Virus record (IMG/VR): IMGVR_UViG_3300030389_003077
Location: 1 to 61,182 of that record
Direction: 5' to 3' (one strand)
Length of the DNA: 61,182 nucleotides
DNA from: a virus
Part shown: piece by piece, positions 20,840 to 25,744 of the stretch
Position numbering within the stretch: position 1 is the stretch's first letter
How the letters are laid out: the number at the start of each line of letters is the position of its first letter
Made by a program: the position numbers and the translations under genes
The notes under the pieces: generated by a model
What the model saw: the letters and a program-made list of their open reading frames with translations, nothing else
What the model was told of the DNA's origin: nothing
Databases searched by the model: none

Positions 20840-20872
20840 TTTGACACGTATTGTTTTTTATTCTTATCTTTG
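20840..20872 (+). promoter_or_regulatory. Strong Bacteroidota-type promoter for the large RNA
   Basis: TTTG at 20840-20843 (within TTTGACA) and TATCTTTG at 20865-20872 are separated by 21 bases. The -7 element matches TAnnTTTG exactly. The expected start of transcription is about 20878-20880, exactly where an 8-bp hairpin begins. No start codon with a plausible gene follows for more than 800 bases. Confidence 0.8.
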
Positions 20873-20877
20873 TTCCC

Positions 20878-21690
20878 AACAATGATTCAATATCGTTGTC
20901 GTTCTTTACATACTGATTCAGACTCGCTATAACGCAGGAAGCCGATACAAGAGCAGTTGAGAATATCCTCTCAAGTATCAATAGGTTAGTAAGCAAGAGT
21001 CTGACTACCAAGTTCCCACGAGAGATAGCATCAAAGGGTTGTTGAGGTAGCACATCAGAATAGACCTTTAGCTTGATTGAGGGTCGTGAGTCTTAGTAAC
21101 GATACATAGCAGTAGCATTGCCTACCCAAGTGTATTAGAGCAATAATTCAATCAGCGTTTGTCAGTAGCGAATCAACTGAACGGAAACCACTGCCGACAA
21201 CTAGGTGGACTTGGATAGACCAATAGGCTATCATCAAGTTAGGTAAAGCACCATAGGGCAATCCAATAAGATTGCATACCGATTAATATGGGAAGTCTAT
21301 CAGAGGGGACACCGATGATATGTACTGAGTAATGTAGCAGTATGTTGATAGGTGTGAGAGTTAGTGACAGATACTCTGAAGTAAGATAGACACCACGCCA
21401 ATGGTTTGTTAGACAGACCAAGTAGGGCGTGTTTAATACTACTAAAAAACTAACTGATTTGATGGGACAATGCAAGGGCTACTCGCAGTAGCTTAATATG
21501 GTGGTGCTTGAGCCTACCTTGCAGAATCTCTTTACGGGAATGTACTGGTTGCCCAAATAAATATGATAGGGGCGTACATGTTTGAACGAGAGTAATCGGT
21601 TGTTAATCCTTATGTTCAGGTATGAGACGACTAACGCTGCAGATGAGCAGGAAGTTAACATAGTGGTTCGATTCCACTAATTCCCACTAA
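20878..21690 (+). ncRNA. Large ornate structured non-coding RNA (GOLLD/ROOL-like or new class)
   Basis: About 810 bases without a credible gene on either strand, richer in G+C (42-47% on two counted lines) than the surrounding genes and preceded by a consensus promoter. Perfect helices include 20879-86/20892-99, 20918-25/20997-21004, 20944-48/20975-79, 20957-62/20969-74, 21209-18/21228-39 (2-base bulge), 21258-63/21270-75, 21297-302/21346-51, 21394-99/21426-31, 21471-77/21517-23 and 21478-83/21487-92. Bases 21013-17 and 21021-26 pair with 21536-40 and 21526-31, closing a domain of about 530 bases. TGATTGA (21074-80) with TCAATCA (21148-54) crosses another helix, implying a pseudoknot. The 3' end (21661-21685) is a T-arm-like hairpin followed by an acceptor-like strand. 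Family assignment is not possible without a covariance search. Confidence 0.8.
21536..21689 (+). ncRNA. tRNA-like 3' domain of the large RNA
   Basis: GGGAAT at 21536-41 pairs with ATTCCC at 21680-85. The hairpin TAGTGG-TTCGATT-CCACTA at 21661-79 has a canonical T-loop (TTCRANY), placed exactly as in a tRNA between T stem and acceptor strand. The following bases are A then CTA rather than ACCA. D and anticodon arms are replaced by about 118 bases with hairpins at 21540-79 and 21637-50. It is therefore tRNA-like and not a normal tRNA. Confidence 0.6.
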
Positions 21691-21705
21691 CTAAACAATT
21701 ACATT

Positions 21706-21873
21706 ATGTTGATTTTACCAATGTACACAGAGCAAGAAAGAGAAGAAATGAAGCCATATCTTGACCAATTAATCCAATGGTTAGATAAAAACGAACACTT
21801 AAAGGATACTGAAGAATACAAGCTTAAATATTCAGAAGCAGAAGGTGTTTATGAAACAATTTACGATTTGTAA
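21706..21873 (+). CDS. Small hypothetical early protein
   Basis: A 55-residue acidic, helical protein (MYTEQEREEMKPYLDQLIQW, then LKDTEEYKLKYSEAEGVYE). It is the first gene after the large RNA, 16 bases beyond its structured end, so it is probably on the same transcript. An inner ATG at 21720 is an alternative start. The function is unknown. Confidence 0.7.
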   Translation: MLILPMYTEQEREEMKPYLDQLIQWLDKNEHLKDTEEYKLKYSEAEGVYETIYDL

Positions 21874-21909
21874 ACCCAAACAAATAGAAACTCTTAAAAT
21901 TATATAACA

Positions 21910-22107
21910 ATGGCAAAGAAAGAAGAAGACTACTTTTATAATGAGTATGGCGAAAGGGTAAGCTTCAATGATTCCCTAAAACCTTATCTTGAGAAAGCAA
22001 GAAAAAGACAACAAGAGGAAGACTCTTGGAATAGGTTTGTAAGAAAACAAGATGAGAAAGAAAAAAATAGAAAGCGTAAACTAAACAATACGAAGAATAA
22101 AGGTTAA
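21910..22107 (+). CDS. Small hypothetical early protein ending in a ribozyme
   Basis: The 65-residue, very charged protein begins MAKKEEDYFYNEYGERVSF and ends in a Lys/Arg/Asn-rich tail. Its stop codon (22105-22107) lies in stem I of the hammerhead ribozyme, so a terminating ribosome would cover the ribozyme. The leader contains the shared TAGAAACT motif at 21884 but with an insertion before the ATG. The family is not recognised. Confidence 0.75.
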   Translation: MAKKEEDYFYNEYGERVSFNDSLKPYLEKARKRQQEEDSWNRFVRKQDEKEKNRKRKLNNTKNKG

Positions 22108-22157
22108 CTGATGAGGATTTAATATCCGAAACCTTGTCTTAGGGCAAGGTCTTAACC
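22102..22157 (+). ncRNA. Type I hammerhead ribozyme
   Basis: All invariant parts are present in order. Stem I 5' strand is GGTTAA (22102-07) and the core is CTGATGA (22108-14). Stem II is GGAT/ATCC (22115-18/22124-27) with loop TTAAT, followed by GAAA (22128-31). Stem III is CCTTGTC/GGCAAGG (22132-38/22143-49, one G-U) with loop TTAG. The A15.1-U16.1 pair (22131-22150), cleavage nucleotide C (22151) and stem I 3' strand TTAACC (22152-57) complete it. Cleavage would fall between 22151 and 22152, leaving 20 bases before the ATG at 22172. The open stem I defines type I. Confidence 0.92.
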
Positions 22158-22171
22158 AAACATTAGAAATT

Positions 22172-22432
22172 ATGAAATCAAAAAACAAATTAGAGTTACT
22201 AAAAGAATTAATAGAGGCTACTGAAGTTTATTCTAAAAAAGTAGAAAGTTTAATTAATACAAAAGAACAAGTCGGTAGTGAGTTTGATGACATCATCTTA
22301 CAACCAAATCAAGACAGACGTTATCAAACCAGCATGAGAATAGAGTTAATGTTTTTACTTAAAAGATTAAAAGTTCAAAATTGGGATTTCATTAATAGTC
22401 AGATGATGATTGAAATAGAAAATGCTAAATAA
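22172..22432 (+). CDS. Hypothetical early protein
   Basis: An 86-residue helical protein (KLELLKELIEATEVYSKKVE) without recognised family. It is the first gene downstream of the hammerhead cleavage site, with a 20-base leader ending in the shared ATTAGAAATTATG start motif. Its expression may depend on the ribozyme-generated 5' end. Confidence 0.8.
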   Translation: MKSKNKLELLKELIEATEVYSKKVESLINTKEQVGSEFDDIILQPNQDRRYQTSMRIELMFLLKRLKVQNWDFINSQMMIEIENAK

Positions 22433-22445
22433 AAAAATAGAAACT

Positions 22446-22823
22446 ATGGAAACTATGTTTAAACAAGAGAAACAACTAAGAGTACTAGCCAAGTGGCTAA
22501 AAGAATCAGATGACGGCATAGATGCTTATACTGACGGAGATATGGAAAGAGCAGTTAAGTATGGTGTACAAGAATGTATGCATAAAATAGGCGACTACCT
22601 TGAAGAAATATTAGATATGAATGATGAACAATTAATTAAAGAGATGGAAACAACTAACAAACAATCAAAATATATCGTTTGGGTAGGTGGTATACCTAAT
22701 CACTTTGACAACTTATTAGATGCCCAAGTACATAAAAAAGAATGGGAAGATGAGGGCTATGATGATGTAGTAATTGAAGCAATATTTAAAGTTAATGGTA
22801 ACGAACATCATTTATTCTGTTAA
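22446..22823 (+). CDS. Hypothetical early protein
   Basis: The start chosen is the ATG at 22446, preceded by ATAGAAACT, the leader shared by neighbours; an upstream in-frame ATG at 22422 lies in the previous gene. The product is 125 residues. The first half is acidic and helical. The second half starts KYIVWVGGIPNHFDNLLDA, a pattern found in small Bacteroidota phage proteins of unknown function. Confidence 0.8.
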   Translation: METMFKQEKQLRVLAKWLKESDDGIDAYTDGDMERAVKYGVQECMHKIGDYLEEILDMNDEQLIKEMETTNKQSKYIVWVGGIPNHFDNLLDAQVHKKEWEDEGYDDVVIEAIFKVNGNEHHLFC

Positions 22824-22848
22824 ACTCTAACATTTTACACTAGAAACT

Positions 22849-23055
22849 ATGGAAATAAAATTTGAAAAGTACAGACAAAACTTAACACAAGTAGGTAACA
22901 ACATTTATAGCTACGATACAAGAGTAGCTAGTATAAATGGTAAACAATTAATCCAATATAAAAATCCACTTAGAATAAATGGTCGTTGGTCAACTACAAC
23001 ACAAAAGCATATCAATTATGTGGCTAACTACTACAACCTTAACCTTAAAAAATAG
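22849..23055 (+). CDS. Small conserved phage protein (WSTTTxKHINYV family)
   Basis: The 68-residue protein has SYDTRVASINGKQL and GRWSTTTQKHINYVAN. This SYxTxVAxI ... W[SY]xTTxKHINYVA arrangement recurs in many phage small proteins of unknown function. It starts directly at the TAGAAACTATG leader and is 5 bases from the next gene. Confidence 0.8.
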   Translation: MEIKFEKYRQNLTQVGNNIYSYDTRVASINGKQLIQYKNPLRINGRWSTTTQKHINYVANYYNLNLKK

Positions 23056-23060
23056 AAACT

Positions 23061-23315
23061 ATGAATTATAAAAAACAAATAGCAGAAGAAATGTACAACG
23101 AGATATGGGATATATTCAATAATTATGGTGGGTATGACTACAACGATACCATGTGGTGTCAAGCACAAGGCTCATCTGACGCTTTTGAACAAACAATAGA
23201 AGATGGAAATTGGGAGGCGTTAGTTAGAGAGTACGAGTCTGTCTTAAAATACATGAGACACATTAAGAAGATATTAATATTACAAAATAGTATACCACCA
23301 CAAGTATATTGCTAA
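23061..23315 (+). CDS. Hypothetical early protein
   Basis: An 84-residue acidic helical protein containing NNYGGYDYNDTMWCQA. No domain or family is recognised. The ATG follows the shared AATAGAAACT leader, and the gene sits in a tightly packed early operon. Confidence 0.75.
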   Translation: MNYKKQIAEEMYNEIWDIFNNYGGYDYNDTMWCQAQGSSDAFEQTIEDGNWEALVREYESVLKYMRHIKKILILQNSIPPQVYC

Positions 23316-23340
23316 ACATTAACCTAAACAATTAGAAACT

Positions 23341-23553
23341 ATGGGAAGTTACACTACAATAGGCTACTTGCAATCTAAGATGATTCGTATGCCTTTAAAC
23401 CTTAATCAAACTTGGAATGAAGATATAAACAACTGCCAAACATCTCAAGAGATTATGGACTACATTAAATTATTTGGTACTAAAGATGAGTATTGGAGAC
23501 TACTCCATGCTATTGGTACAATGGAAATACTAAACTTAGAACTAAACAAATAG
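23341..23553 (+). CDS. Hypothetical early protein
   Basis: A 70-residue protein without recognised domains, starting MGSYTTIGYLQSKMI. It begins at an ATTAGAAACTATG leader, and its stop lies in the AATAGAAACTATG leader of the next gene, so the repeat motif spans the junction. Confidence 0.75.
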   Translation: MGSYTTIGYLQSKMIRMPLNLNQTWNEDINNCQTSQEIMDYIKLFGTKDEYWRLLHAIGTMEILNLELNK

Positions 23554-23558
23554 AAACT

Positions 23559-23816
23559 ATGGAAAAAATTACAAACTTTCAAAAATTAAATAGATTATCT
23601 TGCAAATTCGACATGTATTGCAATGCTACTTTAGACGATACTTGTAACAATCTTTTCAGAAAAGAATATACTGAGATAATGTTAATACGAGATACTAAGT
23701 CAAATGAATTAATCCCAAATACAAATCCATCAGATGAACAAGTGAAACGTATGCAAGATATAAACAAAGTATGTAAAGCAATAGTTCAACAAGTTAAATA
23801 CAATCTAAACAAATAG
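23559..23816 (+). CDS. Hypothetical early protein
   Basis: The start at 23559 follows the shared TAGAAACT leader; an upstream in-frame ATG inside the previous gene is less likely. The product is 85 residues, mostly helical, with SCKFDMYCNATLDDTCNN near the N-terminus. No family is recognised. Confidence 0.75.
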   Translation: MEKITNFQKLNRLSCKFDMYCNATLDDTCNNLFRKEYTEIMLIRDTKSNELIPNTNPSDEQVKRMQDINKVCKAIVQQVKYNLNK

Positions 23817-23821
23817 AAACT

Positions 23822-24088
23822 ATGGAAATAAACGAAGAAAAATTATTTAGCGTAATGGAAGATATTACAAGAGAGCAGTACGATAACCTTTCAGATGGCG
23901 AGACATTAAAACTATCTGAGGAAGTCTCAATGTACAAATACGACCACAACTATGAAACTATGAGTGTGTATGATGATGATGAAGATGATGCACCAACACA
24001 TTGTGTAATACAATACAATGGAGAGGATATATTCGTAGTGCAAACTAACGAAGATTCACTTGAGTTTACAGATATATACGGACTATAA
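23822..24088 (+). CDS. Strongly acidic early protein
   Basis: An 88-residue protein with 25 Asp/Glu and only about 4 Lys/Arg, including YDDDEDDAP. Such acidity in a small early phage protein is typical of DNA mimics that inhibit host DNA-binding enzymes, but no inhibitor family is recognised. It starts at the AATAGAAACTATG leader. Confidence 0.75.
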   Translation: MEINEEKLFSVMEDITREQYDNLSDGETLKLSEEVSMYKYDHNYETMSVYDDDEDDAPTHCVIQYNGEDIFVVQTNEDSLEFTDIYGL

Positions 24089-24847: not shown

Positions 24848-24855
24848 AGCATAGT

Positions 24856-24999
24856 ATGGGCGTAACACAAAAGATTGTAACAAAGCGATTCTTGTATCCT
24901 TTAAGATGCCATCGACATCGAGTCTACCAAAACATGAGGTCTACATACGACTGCGATGCGATTAGGCATGGATTGATTTTTTATAAATGTTTTCTTTGA
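24856..24999 (+). CDS. Doubtful small basic ORF over a structured RNA segment
   Basis: A 47-codon frame starting MGVTQKIVTKRFLYPLRCHR, rich in Arg, His and Cys. Most of it coincides with an 18-bp imperfect hairpin at 24906-24969, and it lacks the usual A-rich leader, so it may not be translated. Confidence 0.3.
   Translation: MGVTQKIVTKRFLYPLRCHRHRVYQNMRSTYDCDAIRHGLIFYKCFL
24906..24969 (+). ncRNA. Long imperfect hairpin, probable structured RNA element
   Basis: ATGCC/GGCAT (24906-10/24965-69), ATCG/CGAT (24911-14/24959-62), CATCG/CGATG (24916-20/24954-58) and AGTC/GACT (24921-24/24949-52) stack into an 18-bp stem with small bulges; a small ACC/GGT hairpin lies in the loop. T6 starts about 7 bases downstream. 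It could be a terminator, a processing site or an independent RNA in the early operon. Confidence 0.6.
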
Positions 25000-25107
25000 A
25001 AACGTTTGTAAACAAATGAATCTTGCTACAAGTAGAATTGCGAAGTTACAAGAAATATTTTATTAAATCAAGTAATTAGAAAAAATTAACAATTAAAGAA
25101 TAAAACT

Positions 25108-25454: not shown

Positions 25455-25706
25455 ATGAAATTAGATCAGATTAGATTTTGGATAAAAGATAAGTCTTGTG
25501 GTGGGTACATCAAAGTAGACTGCGTTAAAAGAGATGAGGGTGGTTATGAGATTACATATTGGTCTAACAATATGATAGATAGAAGTAACGCTACCTTCAT
25601 ATACCCTAAAGCACATTACATGAGTCCGACTACAATAATTAGAATTATTAAGTGGGATGAGCCTCTTTACAACCGACTGAAAGGTGTGCCAGAAAAAGTA
25701 TTGTAA
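25455..25706 (+). CDS. Hypothetical early protein
   Basis: An 83-residue protein with alternating strands (KLDQIRFWIKD, GGYIKVDCVKRDEGGYEITY) and no recognised family. It lies 5 bases after the coiled-coil gene, with an AAAATTATG leader, and is the last gene before an internal promoter. Confidence 0.75.
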   Translation: MKLDQIRFWIKDKSCGGYIKVDCVKRDEGGYEITYWSNNMIDRSNATFIYPKAHYMSPTTIIRIIKWDEPLYNRLKGVPEKVL

Positions 25707-25712
25707 AATAAA

Positions 25713-25744
25713 TTTGCACATGTAAAATATTTTTACTATACTTG
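25713..25744 (+). promoter_or_regulatory. Internal early promoter
   Basis: TTTG (25713-16) and TATACTTG (25737-44) are separated by 20 bases. The -7 box has one mismatch to TAnnTTTG. The segment AAATATTTTTACTATAYTTGCAA also occurs at the promoter at 29470, so these two early promoters share more than the core boxes. Confidence 0.65.

What the first reader, a model, noticed from the sequence alone, without database searches (positions are those of the whole stretch)
22102..22157. Complete type I hammerhead ribozyme inside a phage early operon
Seen: every invariant base (CTGATGA, GAAA, A-U pair before the cleavage C) and all three stems pair perfectly apart from one G-U. Known: hammerheads occur in some phage and bacterial genomes, but their roles are mostly unclear. 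Here cleavage between 22151 and 22152 leaves a 20-base 5'-OH leader for the gene at 22172. It also gives the upstream RNA, which includes the giant structured RNA, a defined 3' end.
Basis: partly seen in the sequence, partly recalled or inferred. Interest (0 to 1): 0.93.

Follow-up and report, generated by a model that had tools for sequence, protein, structure and literature searches.

The report
Self-cutting RNA between phage genes
A 56-letter stretch between two genes of a marine Bacteroidetes-type phage is an intact self-cutting RNA (hammerhead ribozyme), one of a large set placed in the same way between stop and start codons in many phages, where it probably cuts the early gene transcript into separate messages.

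Summary
Window 22102-22157 (+) is a canonical type I hammerhead: invariant core, stems of 6, 4 and 8 bp, one G-U, cleavage after C22151. Chance is excluded: 0 hits in 120 shuffles. Rfam misses it (25.8 bits, cut-off 56.3). A sister phage (L003) and a more distant relative (L186) keep it at the same place, with compensatory changes in L186. It belongs to a large phage set: a core-only scan of IMG/VR gave 101 stretches, and 92 of 97 distinct matches have the whole type I architecture. Anatomy is fixed: upstream stop codon touching or overlapping stem I or the core, cleavage, next ATG about 20-27 nt on. Some records carry 10-14. Cultivated Elemovirus phages have a homologue whose stem II differs by a two-pair compensatory swap, plus natural variants with stem II unpaired. 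Best explanation: co-transcriptional intercistronic processing, giving a hairpin-ended upstream RNA and a short 5'-OH leader downstream. The claim that it defines the giant leader RNA's 3' end is weak: two ORFs intervene, and close relatives keep the leader without the ribozyme. Clustered hammerheads around phage genes were reported in 2011, so this is a new member of a known kind. Cleavage is inferred, not measured.

The parts
22102..22157 (+). Type I hammerhead ribozyme (stems I/II/III 6/4/8 bp; core CTGATGA...GAAA)
   Evidence: orthologues L003:760-815 and L186:2264-2319; model R1 71.0 bits, E 1.2e-14 (the window copy is one of the 55 sequences behind the model)
22151..22152 (+). Predicted scissile bond, after GUC (C17 = 22151)
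   Evidence: Position of H17 in the hammerhead consensus; GTC in 152 of 197 catalogued type I elements. Cleavage not measured.
22105..22107 (+). TAA stop of the upstream ORF, inside the 5' strand of stem I
   Evidence: offset +6 is the commonest in the set (33 of 162)
22152..22171 (+). 20-nt 5'-OH leader left on the downstream mRNA, with TAGAAATT just before the ATG
   Evidence: cleavage-to-ATG 15-32 nt in 147 of 164 elements; TAGAAA.TATG motif 8 times on the + strand of the window
21910..22107 (+). Upstream small ORF, 65 aa, unknown function (a different ORF stands here in L003 and L186)
22172..22432 (+). Downstream small ORF, 86 aa, no relatives found (absent in L003, where the 22449 gene follows the ribozyme directly)
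22449..22823 (+). Next early gene, 124 aa; preceded by the ribozyme in L003 and by a plain leader in L082
20840..20872 (+). Bacteroidetes-type promoter (TTTG-N21-TATCTTTG) of the leader RNA and early operon
   Evidence: same motif with changed spacer in L006:104 and L021:372; the pattern alone is not rarer than chance in the window
20878..21700 (+). Large structured leader RNA upstream in the same predicted transcript (not part of the ribozyme)
   Evidence: conserved in 5 relatives; 33 of 141 predicted pairs show a both-side change

Best explanation
It is an active cis-cleaving type I hammerhead used as an intercistronic processing element. Early transcription starts near 20880 and runs through the leader RNA and small ORFs. 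Once 22102-22157 is transcribed and no ribosome sits on the stop codon in stem I, the RNA folds and cuts itself after C22151. The upstream RNA then ends in the stem III hairpin with a 2',3'-cyclic phosphate. The downstream mRNA starts with a 20-nt 5'-OH leader, UUAACCAAACAUUAGAAAUU, and its start region is freed from upstream structure. The likely benefit is to separate and differently stabilise upstream and downstream messages. Steps shown: structure, conservation, placement, same-strand operon context. Steps inferred: cleavage in cells, the end chemistry (from the known hammerhead mechanism), translation gating, effect on stability or translation.
For: Intact core and stems with chance excluded. 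Orthologues at the same place: L003 (one loop change) and L186, where stem II goes from GGAT/ATCC to GGGT/ACCC and stem III also changes while pairing is kept. Test not biased by pairing: of 97 distinct matches to a pattern that fixes only core and stem II, 92 have the full type I architecture and 2 type III; a core planted at random positions gives 62 of 20,000. All 6 stem I pairs vary on both sides across 55 sequences (rows were chosen by a pairing descriptor). Placement: upstream stop ends within -10..+13 of the stem I start in 148 of 162, next ATG at 15-32 nt in 147 of 164; random places satisfy both in 28 of 2985. Repeated use: up to 14 per record, all on one strand in each multi-copy record. 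Elemovirus phages: stem II GGTT/AACC against GACT/AGTC in otherwise nearly identical sequence. Published support: tandem phage or prophage hammerheads cleaved in vitro, some in E. coli; in haloviruses HF1/HF2 a hammerhead lies 13 nt before a start codon and the mapped mRNA 5' end is within 3 nt of the cleavage site (PMC3088659).
Against: No RNA data exist for this phage, so cleavage and its consequence are not shown. The element is facultative: most close relatives lack it, and L082 keeps neighbouring genes without it. The window has one copy in an early operon of some 30 or more ORFs, so it cannot turn the whole operon into single-gene mRNAs. In elemoD and elemoF stem II is unpaired, so loss is tolerated. 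In the L186 context the full structure is not the most stable predicted fold (probability about 0.02).
Confidence: 0.68

Rival explanations
1. Active ribozyme whose selected product is the upstream RNA: it gives the leader RNA plus small ORFs a defined, protected 3' end.
For: In window, L003 and L186 the ribozyme lies soon after the leader RNA. In Elemovirus and in L189 a type III hammerhead lies directly after a long non-coding stretch and before the first early gene.
Against: One or two ORFs lie between leader RNA and ribozyme in window, L003 and L186; relatives keep the leader RNA without a hammerhead. Most elements in the set lie between two protein genes.
Confidence: 0.14
2. Regulated switch: translation of the upstream ORF decides cleavage, because a ribosome ending on the stop codon in stem I or the core covers the ribozyme.
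For: The stop codon ends inside the hammerhead in 88 of 162 cases, most often at +6 (33) and +10 (19); the window offset is +6.
Against: Many elements have the stop just before stem I, so overlap is not required; compact packing would also give this. No functional data.
Confidence: 0.1
3. Neutral or decaying ribozyme carried along with gene cassettes; no present function.
For: Patchy presence; plain G6/C6 hairpins at comparable places in L082 and L006; stem II unpaired in elemoD and elemoF.
Against: Core intact and stems covarying over large distances; fixed placement between stop and start.
Confidence: 0.07
4. Chance hammerhead-like fold in AT-rich DNA.
For: Rfam models do not reach their cut-offs.
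Against: 0 in 120 shuffles, orthologues with compensatory change, 92 of 97 core matches complete.
Confidence: 0.01

Closest known systems
Phage and prophage hammerhead clusters of Perreault et al. 2011 (PMC3088659)
   Same: Hammerheads near each other flank single small genes of phages; the authors already suggested processing of long phage transcripts; some cleaved in vitro and in E. coli.
   Different: Here a mostly type I set with stem I of 6 bp and stem II of 4 bp, in mostly uncultivated phages, with a measured stop-ribozyme-start geometry.
HHphage of haloviruses HF1/HF2 (PMC3088659)
   Same: Hammerhead 13 nt upstream of an early gene start codon; mapped mRNA 5' end within 3 nt of the cleavage site.
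   Different: Archaeal virus, insertions in the core, before the first gene of a polycistronic transcript, not between two cistrons.
Rfam RF00163 Hammerhead_1 and RF03152 RAGATH-1-hammerhead
   Same: Same core; one of 74 catalogued elements in 16 loci passes RF00163; RAGATH-1 is the best sub-threshold match for the window.
   Different: The window element fails both cut-offs; the 5' hairpin of the RAGATH-1 model is not convincingly present.
Theta ribozymes of gut phages (PMC10879173, abstract only)
   Same: Self-cleaving RNA used inside phage genomes.
   Different: HDV-like fold, tied by its authors to tRNA-based recoding; not a hammerhead.

Membership tests
Hammerhead ribozyme class (core criteria of PMC3088659) | Core C3 U4 G5 A6 N7 G8 A9, G12 A13 A14, A15.1-U16.1, H17 | tested here: met
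   CTGATGA, GAA, A22131-T22150, C22151
Hammerhead ribozyme class (core criteria of PMC3088659) | Pairs next to the core in stems I, II and III are intact | tested here: met
   A22107-T22152, G22115-C22127, A22131-T22150
Hammerhead ribozyme class (core criteria of PMC3088659) | Structure kept by compensatory change in relatives | tested here: met
   L186, Elemovirus stem II swap, set-wide covariation
Hammerhead ribozyme class (core criteria of PMC3088659) | Stem I / stem II tertiary contact | tested here: inconclusive
   Loop II mostly TNNNT, A at -1 in 163 of 178 and A at +1 in 167 of 176 suggest a contact; not modelled
Hammerhead ribozyme class (core criteria of PMC3088659) | Self-cleavage at H17 | not testable with these tools
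   Needs in vitro transcription
Type I hammerhead (open stem I) | Stems II and III closed by loops, stem I open | tested here: met
Rfam RF00163 Hammerhead_1 | Score at or above gathering (34 bits) | tested here: not met
   No match at gathering or at E up to 10 in a narrow scan
Rfam RF03152 RAGATH-1-hammerhead | Score at or above gathering (56.3 bits), including the 5' hairpin | tested here: not met
   25.8 bits

The most novel reading that the evidence does not exclude
A phage-wide, database-invisible class of intercistronic hammerhead cassettes (stop codon in stem I or core, cut, about 20-27-nt 5'-OH leader, start codon). In the densest phages it may cut early operons into single-gene mRNAs, possibly gated by the ribosome that ends on the built-in stop codon.
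Probability: 0.35. Interest if true: 0.82.

Novelty: new member of a known kind. Interest (0 to 1): 0.64.

Why it matters
What phage hammerheads are for has been open since they were found. The fixed stop-ribozyme-start geometry, 10-14 copies in some records and the near-invisibility to Rfam argue for a common way of processing phage mRNA that annotation overlooks. The cultivated Elemovirus phages, which differ naturally in whether stem II pairs, make the question testable in one host.

Tried and rejected
Relatives of the 22172 gene: none in IMG/VR. DNA match in named phages to 21600-23400: none. Most short blastn hits (for example enterobacterial phages) were not followed; the Elemovirus hit was, and is real. 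RNA ligases that could rejoin the ends: no RtcB or RNA_ligase match in the window (the record may be a fragment). Intrinsic terminator reading of stem III: no T run follows. Retroelement or circular-RNA role: single copy in the window and no sign of it in the genes checked; not pursued. Decayed hammerheads in close relatives: none convincing with filters off in L006, L014, L021, L028, L082. Weak descriptor hits with abnormal stems or core in L012, L021, L058, L065-L067 were discarded. The first TerL scan failed on the handle limit and was repeated. Literature searches found no newer paper on this phage set, in a library that lacks most subscription papers.

Full report
What is there. The sequence at 22102-22157 (+) reads GGTTAA CTGATGA GGAT TTAAT ATCC GAA ACCTTGTC TTAG GGCAAGGT C TTAACC: a type I hammerhead with every invariant base, stems of 6, 4 and 8 bp and one G-U. 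Its predicted minimum-energy fold is exactly this, and it stays favoured in the native context. The core+GTC pattern occurs once in 61 kb, with 0.05 expected, and a full descriptor finds none in 120 shuffles. Rfam does not call it; the nearest model is RAGATH-1-hammerhead at 25.8 bits against 56.3.

Where it lies. The record is a 61-kb IMG/VR phage contig. Terminase and portal belong to PHROGs families, and the terminase is 37-39% identical to that of cultivated Flavobacterium phages of the genus Elemovirus. A Bacteroidetes-type promoter at 20840-20872, kept in L006 and L021 with a changed spacer, is followed by a large structured leader RNA, two small ORFs, the ribozyme and the early genes. 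Pattern matches to that promoter are not rarer than chance in the window as a whole, so its support is the conservation. The upstream stop codon (22105-22107) lies in stem I and the next ATG is 20 nt after the cleavage site.

Close relatives. L003 (a sister contig, 96% in the exonuclease) keeps the ribozyme with one loop change, although the upstream ORF is replaced and the downstream gene is absent, so the ribozyme stands directly before the 22449 gene. L186 (exonuclease 81% identical) has it at the same place with compensatory changes in stem II and further paired changes in stem III. Most other close relatives have none. L082 keeps both the small ORF that precedes the ribozyme in L003 and L186 (91%) and the 22449 gene (95%); after that small ORF it has a G6-CTTG-C6 hairpin followed by TTAACC where the ribozyme would be, and L006 has a similar hairpin. 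So the element looks selected where present, but it is facultative.

A large phage set. A pattern that fixes only core and stem II gave 101 stretches in IMG/VR and only 8 in 84,980 bacterial and archaeal species genomes. Of 97 distinct matches in the fetched loci, 92 have the full type I architecture and 2 type III; planting the core at random places gives 62 of 20,000. The catalogue holds 197 distinct type I elements, 12 type III and 4 type II. At the earlier count of 226 type I hits, stem I was exactly 6 bp in 203; loop II is mostly TNNNT and an A flanks stem I on both sides. An alignment of 55 of them shows all 6 stem I pairs varying on both sides; those rows were chosen by a descriptor that demands pairing, so one search is the fairer test. 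Rfam gathering finds 1 of 74 elements in 16 loci.

Placement. Of type I elements with enough flank, the upstream ORF ends within -10..+13 of the stem I start in 148 of 162, most often with the stop at the end of the stem I strand (+6), in the core (+10) or just before stem I (0). The next ATG follows cleavage by 15-32 nt in 147 of 164. Random positions satisfy both in 28 of 2985. Records carry up to 14 copies, all on one strand in each multi-copy record. Terminase relatives at about 50% identity carry 1-8; many other carriers show no match to this terminase.

A cultivated test bed. All 68 Elemovirus records hold the stretch with a type III hammerhead before the first early gene and the stretch with a type I element between two early genes. 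One record of each of six species was read for the type I element: stem II is GGTT/AACC in elemoB and elemoC, GACT/AGTC in elemoA and elemoE (two pairs exchanged), and GACT/AACC, unpaired, in elemoD and elemoF. This is compensatory change between near-identical phages of one host, and a natural mutant set.

How it most likely works. After transcription the ribozyme cuts after C22151, giving an upstream RNA with a hairpin and 2',3'-cyclic phosphate at its 3' end and a downstream mRNA with a short 5'-OH leader. The end chemistry is that known for hammerheads; cleavage here is not measured. Published support for the architecture: tandem phage hammerheads cleaved in vitro and in E. coli, and in haloviruses HF1/HF2 the mapped mRNA 5' end lies within 3 nt of a hammerhead site (PMC3088659). 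The built-in stop codon makes translation gating possible but untested. The reading that it serves to define the leader RNA's 3' end is weaker, as ORFs intervene and relatives keep the leader without the ribozyme, though the type III elements of Elemovirus and L189 would fit it.

Verdict. A genuine type I hammerhead and a new member of a known kind: phage hammerheads around small genes were described in 2011. The added value is the fixed intercistronic geometry, the scale, the near-absence from Rfam calls, and a cultivated system that can decide the function.

Noticed in passing
20878-21700: Large structured leader RNA with no Rfam match, conserved in L006, L014, L021, L084 and L186; 33 of 141 predicted pairs show a change on both sides across 6 sequences; its 3' part in window and L003 holds a tRNA T-arm-like hairpin (GTGGTTCGATTCCAC).
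   Followed up: partly
24848-25107: 260-nt gap between early ORFs, 97.6% identical to L003 while neighbouring genes differ more; part of it (25041-25095) is kept in several relatives. Possibly another structured RNA.
   Followed up: no
22164-23824 and 27797: TAGAAA.TATG leader motif directly before start codons of early genes (8 on + strand, 1 on -), sometimes with the upstream stop TAG as its first three bases.
   Followed up: partly
25709-25738: Promoter-like stretch (TTTG...TATACTTG) between early ORFs; the 37 nt at 25702-25738 are identical in L011.
   Followed up: no
L082:7011-7026, L006:1149-1166, L021:1842: Plain G6-loop-C6 hairpins followed by TTAACC or TTTAACC before a start codon, at places comparable to where relatives have a hammerhead; the ribozyme's own stem I 3' strand is TTAACC.
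   Followed up: partly
L195:534-4571: Eight type I hammerheads within about 4 kb on a short contig binned as Aliivibrio; probably a phage contig.
   Followed up: no
L202:4188-4242 and L189:3975-4027: Type III hammerhead directly after a long non-coding stretch and just before the first early gene.
   Followed up: partly
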